NCBI GenBank assembly: GCA_017524615.1 | Contig: JAFXVJ010000056.1 | Location: forward strand, 1-48,575 | Length of the DNA: 48,575 nt | Reading direction: 5' to 3' | Source of the DNA: Clostridia bacterium | GTDB lineage: Bacteria; Bacillota; Clostridia; Christensenellales; Aristaeellaceae | Shown here: one piece after another, positions 45,702 through 46,206 of the stretch | Numbering within the stretch: the stretch's first letter is position 1 | How the letters are laid out: each line of letters opens with the position of its first letter | Translations under genes and position numbers: made by a program | The notes under the pieces: model-generated | Database searches by the model: none | What the model was told of the DNA's origin: nothing | Seen by the model: only the letters and a program-made list of their open reading frames with translations

Positions 45702-45757
45702 GGAAGCGATCAAGCGGCGCAGGGGGCCTAAGCAGCCGAACATATCCAATCTTTTAG

Positions 45758-46117
45758 GGGAGAGCAAACGTGCTCTCCCTCAGAGCATCGACAAAGTCGA
45801 TGCTCTGCCATCGAAAGTCTGCAAAGCAGTCTTTCGATGGGAACATCAATTTGCTGTAAAATGGCGTTTTCAGGTATAAACACCTGAAAACGCTCATTTT
45901 ATGGCCGCAAATTGATATGGGAAGCAAATTTCATTTGCCTGCCCGGGGCTGCCGCCCGGCCTTCGCTGAAAATGATCCACTGGATCATTTTCCGGGCGCT
46001 ACGGCCCCCGGCGACGCACATGTCGCCGCCTTCGGATGAAAATCGAAGGGGCTGCGGCCCCTTCGATGCATCCCCAGAGGTTTGCCGACAGTCTGGGGGA
46101 GAGCAAACGCGCTCTCC
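45758..46117 (+). repeat. Array of about ten abutting perfect or near-perfect hairpins
   Basis: Within 360 bases after ileS stand, in order: GGGAGAGC/GCTCTCCC (45758-45779); a 12-bp stem with AAA loop (45781-45807); a 15-bp stem with one T-T mismatch and AAA loop (45808-45840); a nested long hairpin (45845-45916, outer 10 bp, inner 7 and 11 bp); GCAAAT/ATTTGC (45924-45938); a 12-bp stem inside a CGCCCGG/CCGGGCG stem (45953-45998); GGCGAC/GTCGCC (46010-46027); an 11-bp stem inside GGATG/CATCC (46034-46073); CCCCAGA/TCTGGGG (46072-46098); and GGAGAGC/GCTCTCC (46098-46117). The first and last hairpins are nearly the same sequence. No ORF with family signal lies within. Confidence 0.85.
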
Positions 46118-46125
46118 TTTTTTTT
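46098..46125 (+). terminator. Strong terminator closing the hairpin array
   Basis: GGAGAGC (46098-46104) pairs with GCTCTCC (46111-46117), loop AAACGC, followed by eight T residues. It could end ileS transcripts that read through the array. Confidence 0.88.
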
Positions 46126-46206
46126 GTTTCGTTTTTTCGCGGTCCGCATACAGTGATATCAGGCGAAGAGATTTCGCCAAACGGAAATGAAACGAGGCGC
46201 ATCCGC

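What the first reader, a model, noticed from the sequence alone, without database searches (positions are those of the whole stretch)
45745..46130. Ten perfect hairpins packed end to end between ileS and the collagen-like gene
Within 360 bases nearly every base belongs to an inverted repeat. Stems are 6-15 bp with loops of 1-6 nt (AAA twice), and each stem has a different sequence, so this is not a tandem repeat. The first and last hairpins are almost the same (GGGAGAGC-AAACGY-GCTCTCC), which frames the array as one unit, and the last ends in eight T. Possible readings are a large structured non-coding RNA, a protective 3' UTR for the long ileS mRNA, or a transposable or target-site hairpin element.
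Basis: seen in the sequence. Interest (0 to 1): 0.75.

Follow-up and report, generated by a model that had tools for sequence, protein, structure and literature searches.

The report
Terminator-duplicating, hairpin-packed mobile DNA element
The run of hairpins is best read as a short mobile DNA element without a gene of its own that landed at a gene's stop-transcription hairpin and copied that hairpin to both of its sides; relatives sit in the same way in related gut bacteria.

Summary
The hairpins are real: the 386 bases fold at z = -15.3; 0 of 100 shuffles fold as well. The feature is a 315-bp non-coding mobile element (45781-46095) inserted at the ileS terminator. The near-identical first and last hairpins are not part of it: they are a target-site duplication of the terminator stem-loop, and only the downstream copy keeps its T run. 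Seven copies lie in the same genome, six between duplicated, locus-specific hairpins. Of 56 copies with both flanks, 37 exceed all 3,080 mismatched flank pairs. None of 16 ileS orthologues carries it. Four IS1182-family insertion sequences in relatives show the same hairpin duplication and similar ends, so this is best read as a MITE moved by an IS1182-type transposase; none was found in the own draft genome. Known IS1272 insertions delete or replace the hairpin. Internal stems covary (36 of 69 pairs changed on both sides), without G-U over A-C bias and in both orientations, which speaks against a one-strand RNA gene. New variant of a known kind; transposition itself is inferred.

The parts
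42543..45701 (+). ileS coding sequence (host gene whose terminator was the target)
   Evidence: ORF of 1052 aa; orthologue-level matches (76-84% over 352 C-terminal aa) in 16 of 28 other genus genomes
45757..45778 (+). left copy of the ileS terminator stem-loop, without T run (target-site duplication); two bases (45779-45780) lie between it and the element
   Evidence: 22 nt, 21 of 22 identical to the right copy, dG -12.5
45781..46095 (+). mobile hairpin-array element (MITE), 315 bp
   Evidence: left end CAGAGCATCGACAAAG, right end (reverse complement) CAGACTGTCGGCAAAC; six other full places in the genome and copies across the genus
45781..45807 (.). hairpin 1, which contains the left terminal inverted repeat
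   Evidence: 12-bp perfect stem; 5 of 9 pairs with both-side changes in relatives
45808..45840 (.). hairpin 2
   Evidence: 15-nt arms, 93% complementary; 7 of 10 pairs in helix 2 with both-side changes
45845..45916 (.). hairpin 3, two-storey stem with internal loop
   Evidence: 14 of 29 pairs in helices 4 and 5 with both-side changes
45919..45943 (.). hairpin 4
   Evidence: helix 6: 4 of 9 pairs with both-side changes, 100% of cells paired
45943..46009. 67-bp hairpin module, not in the 35 aligned short copies; near-identical stretches also occur alone elsewhere in the genus
   Evidence: matches of up to 97-99% limited to about query 199-265 in several genomes; L256, L257
46009..46028 (.). hairpin 6 (CGGCGACGCACATGTCGCCG)
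   Evidence: 7-bp perfect stem
46042..46067 (.). hairpin 7 (ATCGAAGGGGC/GCCCCTTCGAT)
   Evidence: 11-bp perfect stem
46080..46095 (-). right terminal inverted repeat
   Evidence: fits the end consensus drawn from 86 ends
46096..46117 (+). right copy of the ileS terminator stem-loop
   Evidence: called terminator-like with its T tail
46118..46125 (+). T run of the ileS terminator, kept only beside the right copy
   Evidence: TTTTTTTT

Best explanation
The array is a non-autonomous transposable element (MITE) of the IS1182 type. Its body is a chain of covarying palindromes, and its targets are Rho-independent terminator hairpins. Likely mechanism: an IS1182-family DDE transposase supplied in trans binds the CAGnnnATCGACAAAG-like ends and recognises the target as a stem-loop or cruciform, not as a sequence. 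It joins one element 3' end to the 5' foot of the hairpin on each strand, and gap repair then copies the whole 20-34 nt hairpin to both sides. Since the T run stays only beyond the far copy, termination is kept but probably moves about 340 nt downstream, and the element becomes part of the ileS 3' UTR. Shown here: element ends, copy number, whole-hairpin duplication, ileS orthologues without the element, similar ends and the same duplication in four IS1182 copies, covariation. Inferred: trans-mobilisation, cruciform recognition, effect on transcription.
For: Seven copies in the own genome, six between duplicated, locus-specific hairpins. 37 of 56 copies with both flanks score above the highest of 3,080 mismatched flank pairs; duplications are 20-34 nt, mean 26, and the left copy folds as a hairpin in each. 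In 34 of those 37 a gene's 3' end faces the element within 250 nt, by my own gene caller. 0 of 16 ileS orthologues carry it; by eye, two are followed by a gene with a start like that of the collagen-like gene, with one terminator between. IS1182 copies L038, L039, L321 and L324 have the same whole-hairpin duplication (4 of 17 loci examined). Of 8 IS loci scanned with the MITE-end matrix, in 5 (L038, L320, L321, L323, L324) the two best sites are the two IS ends. 10 of 19 more distant copies, 9 of them from other genera, also show the duplication above the null maximum.
Against: No IS1182 transposase found in the own genome (draft, 81.6% complete); 2 of 29 genus genomes reach the family cut-off, one with an in-frame stop. 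19 of 56 copies show no duplication above the null. Of 17 IS loci, 12 show no hairpin duplication and 1 had no flank; L320 lies between two different hairpins, L319 and L323 end at contig edges, and L326 has a repeat that does not fold. No null was run. End scores: the stronger IS ends reach 17.4-24.0 (L319 14.1), the weaker ends of L038, L320, L321 and L324 only 11.7-13.1, while the best site in 80 control loci averages 11.3 (95% 17.1, max 19.2); so the weaker ends rest on position, not score. In L039 the right end is not among the top four and an internal site scores 17.2; in L319 the ends rank first and third. Beyond the ends I saw no sequence shared by IS and MITE. Known IS1272 insertions delete or replace the hairpin (PMC4923244, PMC5678879).
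Confidence: 0.85

Rival explanations
1. A structured non-coding RNA or stabilising 3' UTR element, selected for its host function, that is copied around the genome as a by-product.
For: Strong covariation, 36 of 69 pairs with both-side changes, 0 of 500 shuffles; conserved unpaired stretches; sense orientation after ileS. RNA made from both strands, as between convergent genes, would also fit the lack of strand bias.
Against: Both orientations: of 37 copies with duplication 18 between convergent genes, 9 sense only, 7 antisense only, 3 neither. Non-Watson-Crick cells are A-C (18) as often as G-U (13); the antisense strand folds at least as well (sense more stable in 18 of 56). No Rfam family at gathering score. 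Target duplication and inverted-repeat ends are marks of transposition.
Confidence: 0.08
2. Mosaic of repetitive extragenic palindromes spread by another enzyme (for example a REP-type tyrosine transposase) and not by an IS1182-type transposase.
For: Modular make-up: one 67-bp module occurs alone, one hairpin is swapped (L231) and extra hairpins are inserted (L006, L007, L008). No IS1182 transposase found in the own genome.
Against: Inverted-repeat ends and 20-34 nt target duplications, which REP-type movement is not known to make (recalled); four IS1182 copies in relatives share the duplication and have similar ends. I did not search for tyrosine transposases.
Confidence: 0.05
3. The framing hairpins are chance or arise from local duplication or assembly error, with an unrelated palindrome cluster between them.
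For: Single-locus evidence alone would allow it; the sources are draft assemblies and several copies lie at contig ends.
Against: 37 of 56 copies show locus-specific hairpin duplication above all 3,080 mismatched pairs; four IS1182 copies show it too.
Confidence: 0.02

Closest known systems
IS1182-family insertion sequences of the same bacterial family (L038, L039, L321, L324; NCBIfam NF033551)
   Same: CAGnnnATCGACAAAG-like inverted ends, insertion at hairpins, whole hairpin duplicated
   Different: About 1.5 kb, with a DDE transposase gene (L039 checked); no hairpin-array body
IS1272 and TnSha1 of staphylococci (IS1182 family)
   Same: Target stem-loops, several of them confirmed transcription terminators, without sequence consensus, in both orientations (passages of PMC4923244); one branch of the model in PMC5678879 (Fig. 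13 legend) has the stem-loop duplicated
   Different: The insertions described there delete part of the hairpin or replace it, without target duplication; here the hairpin is duplicated intact
IS1182-type MITEs of Methanosarcina acetivorans (partner ISMac2)
   Same: Short relatives of IS1182 elements, 160 and 169 bp (table rows seen in PMC3852290)
   Different: Last two numbers per row are 26 and 4, and 25 and 0, which I read as inverted and direct repeats; no 20-34 nt hairpin duplication in what I saw
BOX, RUP and SPRITE repeats of Streptococcus pneumoniae
   Same: Intergenic repeats that cluster and insert into one another; SPRITE is terminator-like (passages of PMC10969869); BOX is modular (recalled)
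   Different: Whole-terminator duplication not mentioned in the passages I saw; sequences not compared here

Membership tests
MITE | short, multicopy, without transposase gene | tested here: met
   315 bp; 7 full places in the own genome; one relative (L024) carries a cargo ORF that is not a transposase
MITE | terminal inverted repeats | tested here: met
   imperfect, about 16 bp: CAGAGCATCGACAAAG and CAGACTGTCGGCAAAC in the window; consensus from 86 ends
MITE | target-site duplication | tested here: met
   37 of 56 copies above all mismatched pairs, the window copy among them; 20-34 nt hairpins
IS1182-mobilised element | ends and target duplication of the same type as IS1182 elements of relatives | tested here: met
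   duplication in 4 of 17 IS loci, ends in 5 of 8 scanned, with the weaker ends not remarkable by score; 8 more distant IS1182 loci (L326-L333) lack such ends (top scores 5.4-10.0)
IS1182-mobilised element | transposase present in the same genome | tested here: inconclusive
   none found in the own draft genome, 81.6% complete
IS1182-mobilised element | moved in trans by the transposase | not testable with these tools
   needs a transposition assay
IS1272-mode insertion | target hairpin deleted or replaced, no duplication | tested here: not met
   hairpin duplicated in 37 of 56 copies and in 4 IS1182 copies
Structured RNA family (Rfam) | match to a described family | tested here: not met
   none in the region at gathering score; three chance-level matches at E 0.12-0.73
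Structured RNA | one-strand selection (G-U tolerated over A-C) | tested here: not met
   13 G-U against 18 A-C cells in 56 pairs of 35 copies

The most novel reading that the evidence does not exclude
A group of IS1182 transposases selects its target purely by DNA hairpin shape and cuts each strand at the hairpin's foot, so that every insertion hands the host a second intact terminator; its dependent elements have evolved a body made almost wholly of two-strand palindromes, kept near-perfect by selection on transposition or by template-switch repair, as a conserved structural requirement spread through many genera of a bacterial family.
Probability: 0.4. Interest if true: 0.75.

Novelty: new variant of a known kind. 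Interest (0 to 1): 0.6.

Why it matters
It offers a natural, replicated data set on how a DDE transposase may choose a DNA shape instead of a sequence while leaving the host's terminators working. The published IS1272 model allows stem-loop duplication, but the insertions in the passages I read show loss or replacement of the hairpin. The body also gives a case in which compensatory changes in stems run with no sign of one-strand RNA selection, a caution for reading covariation as proof of a functional RNA. Such elements could be annotated by mistake as structured non-coding RNAs.

Tried and rejected
Fixed orientation: the own-genome copies looked all sense, which suggested a 3' UTR RNA. Gene calls on 56 copies did not bear this out. 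T-run against A-run composition alone was undecided (18 against 15, 4 ties).

Known RNA family: Rfam at gathering score found only a SAM riboswitch and two tRNAs elsewhere in the window. A relaxed search gave chance-level eukaryotic families.

Host naming: the one genome-contig scan gave 80 relatives by IleS (best 88%, a Clostridia MAG from roe deer rumen; Candidatus Onthenecus 67%, Christensenella 58-62%). I give no species name. BLAST of two copies against those 80 loci (about 1.5 kb flanks at most) found none at E <= 0.01, so I have no named example.

Literature: ten searches. One search (IS1182, terminator, target site duplication) gave one unrelated paper by its title. each gave PMC4923244 alone. 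One search gave PMC5678879 among 43. One search gave PMC3852290 and PMC3281130 among 9. Searches gave 2, 2 and 3 papers; of these I read passages of PMC10969869 only. One search gave none; one search concerned template switching. I found no whole-terminator duplication described for a MITE in what I saw; subscription papers and ISfinder are not held. I recall, from no call, that ISfinder lists long direct repeats for some IS1182 members.

Not tried: structure prediction, a tyrosine-transposase search, a near-identical empty site in a sister strain, an end scan of the IS loci L322 and L325.

Full report
Observation. The outer two hairpins are nearly the same, and only the last one is followed by T8.

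Copies. The own genome has the array at seven places, plus fragments. Read side by side, the inner sequence is the same element, while the flanks differ from place to place; yet at six of seven the hairpin before the element returns after it (the exception is L003). Hence the framing hairpins belong to the target. In the window the element is 45781-46095 and the duplicated terminator is 45757-45778 and 46096-46117.

Test of the duplication. 29 of 29 genus genomes, own included, gave a match, some of them a single weak one; the match list is cut. I picked 80 stretches from the list (two of them module-only matches), added the loci (L001-L067), and paired left and right ends by profile: 92 left and 117 right hits gave 59 paired elements, 57 unique, 56 with both flanks; unpaired ends were dropped. 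Flank against flank, 37 of 56 score 16 or more; the highest of 3,080 mismatched pairs is 15. The other 19 reach 11 at most. The duplicated stretch is 20-34 nt (mean 26) and its left copy folds as a hairpin in each of the 37.

Where it sits. With a simple codon-score gene caller of my own (longer flanks), 34 of the 37 copies with duplication have a gene's 3' end facing them within 250 nt: 18 between convergent genes, 9 sense only, 7 antisense only; 3 have neither. This overturned my early impression of one fixed orientation and weakens a one-strand RNA function.

Sites without it. Orthologue-level IleS matches (76-84%) were found in 16 of 28 other genus genomes; 11 gave only weak matches (31-36%) and 1 none. 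None of the 16 carries the element, with 199 nt (L159) or at least 897 nt of downstream sequence held. By eye, in two of them (L149, L150) ileS is followed, as in the window, by a gene with a similar start, with one terminator between. These are not near-identical empty sites.

Partner. IS1182 transposases reach the family cut-off in 2 of 29 genus genomes and 17 of 150 genomes of the family (22 at E <= 1e-60). I examined 17 loci: L038, L039, L321 and L324 lie between two copies of a hairpin; L322 had no flank; 12 show no hairpin duplication, among them L320 (two different hairpins), L319 and L323 (cut by a contig edge, with a hairpin on the side that can be seen). The MITE-end matrix (86 ends) was run on 8 IS loci: the two IS ends rank first and second in L038, L320, L321, L323 and L324, first and third in L319; in L039 one end ranks first and the other is not in the top four; L326 has no such ends. 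Controls: the best site in 80 ileS loci averages 11.3, 95% 17.1, max 19.2; eight more distant IS1182 loci reach 5.4-10.0. So the stronger IS ends stand out (17.4-24.0, L324 only just; L319 14.1), while the weaker ends of L038, L320, L321 and L324 (11.7-13.1) convince by place, not by score. No such transposase was found in the own genome, which is a draft.

Body. In 35 of the 57 copies, chosen for a length of 235-253 bp, the stems covary: 98.9% of cells paired against 89.7% after shuffling, 36 of 69 pairs with both-side changes, 0 of 500 shuffles, and sliding the partners destroys it. In 56 pairs of the four well-aligned hairpins there are 187 cells with a different Watson-Crick pair, 13 G-U, 18 A-C and 6 other. 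By parsimony on one tree, with ties resolved towards Watson-Crick states, there are 84 Watson-Crick to Watson-Crick double changes against 33 single ones that leave a Watson-Crick pair (12 G-T, 17 A-C, 4 other). Template switching can make multi-base compensation in one step (abstract of PMC8794818). I cannot separate this from selection on both strands, as DNA or as RNA from either side. Fifty-six elements fold at a median z of -10.0, the weakest -6.3, with 20 shuffles each; the sense strand is the more stable in 18 of 56.

Range. 35 of 150 genomes of the family (20 of 50 genera) and 7 of 200 of the order, four of these outside the family, hold related sequence at E <= 0.001. Of 20 loci that I picked (17 from other genera, 3 from the genus), 19 could be tested and 10 show duplication above the null maximum, 9 of them from other genera.

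Known kinds. IS1272 and TnSha1, of the IS1182 family, target terminator stem-loops but delete part of them (passages of PMC4923244) or replace them (abstract and passages of PMC5678879). The latter's model figure legend includes a branch that would duplicate the stem-loop. IS1182 MITEs in Methanosarcina and an IS1182 element in Paracoccus are listed with a last number of 0 or 4 (passages of PMC3852290 and PMC3281130), which I read as short direct repeats. The present elements are therefore a variant: same kind of target, opposite outcome.

Noticed in passing
about L024:1493-2976 (G013:C15): A 1.5-kb relative with the same ends and hairpin duplication carries an open ORF of a phosphotransferase-family protein (Pfam APH, E 2.9e-9; weak homoserine-kinase matches), so the element can carry cargo.
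   Followed up: partly
window 45943-46009; L256, L257: 67-bp double-hairpin module near-identical to stretches that occur elsewhere in the genus without the rest of the element.
   Followed up: partly
L006, L007, L008: Three own-genome copies have additional hairpins inserted between hairpins 2 and 3.
   Followed up: no
L231: Hairpin 2 replaced by an unrelated hairpin in the same place: the fold is kept, the sequence is not.
   Followed up: no
L038, L039 just inside the IS ends: By eye, these IS1182 elements carry a terminator-like hairpin inside each end, perhaps to stop read-through into the transposase gene.
   Followed up: no
L320: IS1182 copy flanked by two different hairpins, perhaps a recombinant between two insertions.
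   Followed up: no
window 46209-46920: Collagen-like Gly-X-Y repeat protein gene after the element; a gene with a similar start follows ileS in L149 and L150.
   Followed up: no
window 2092-2199 and 22597-22746: SAM riboswitch (+) and two tRNA genes (-).
   Followed up: no
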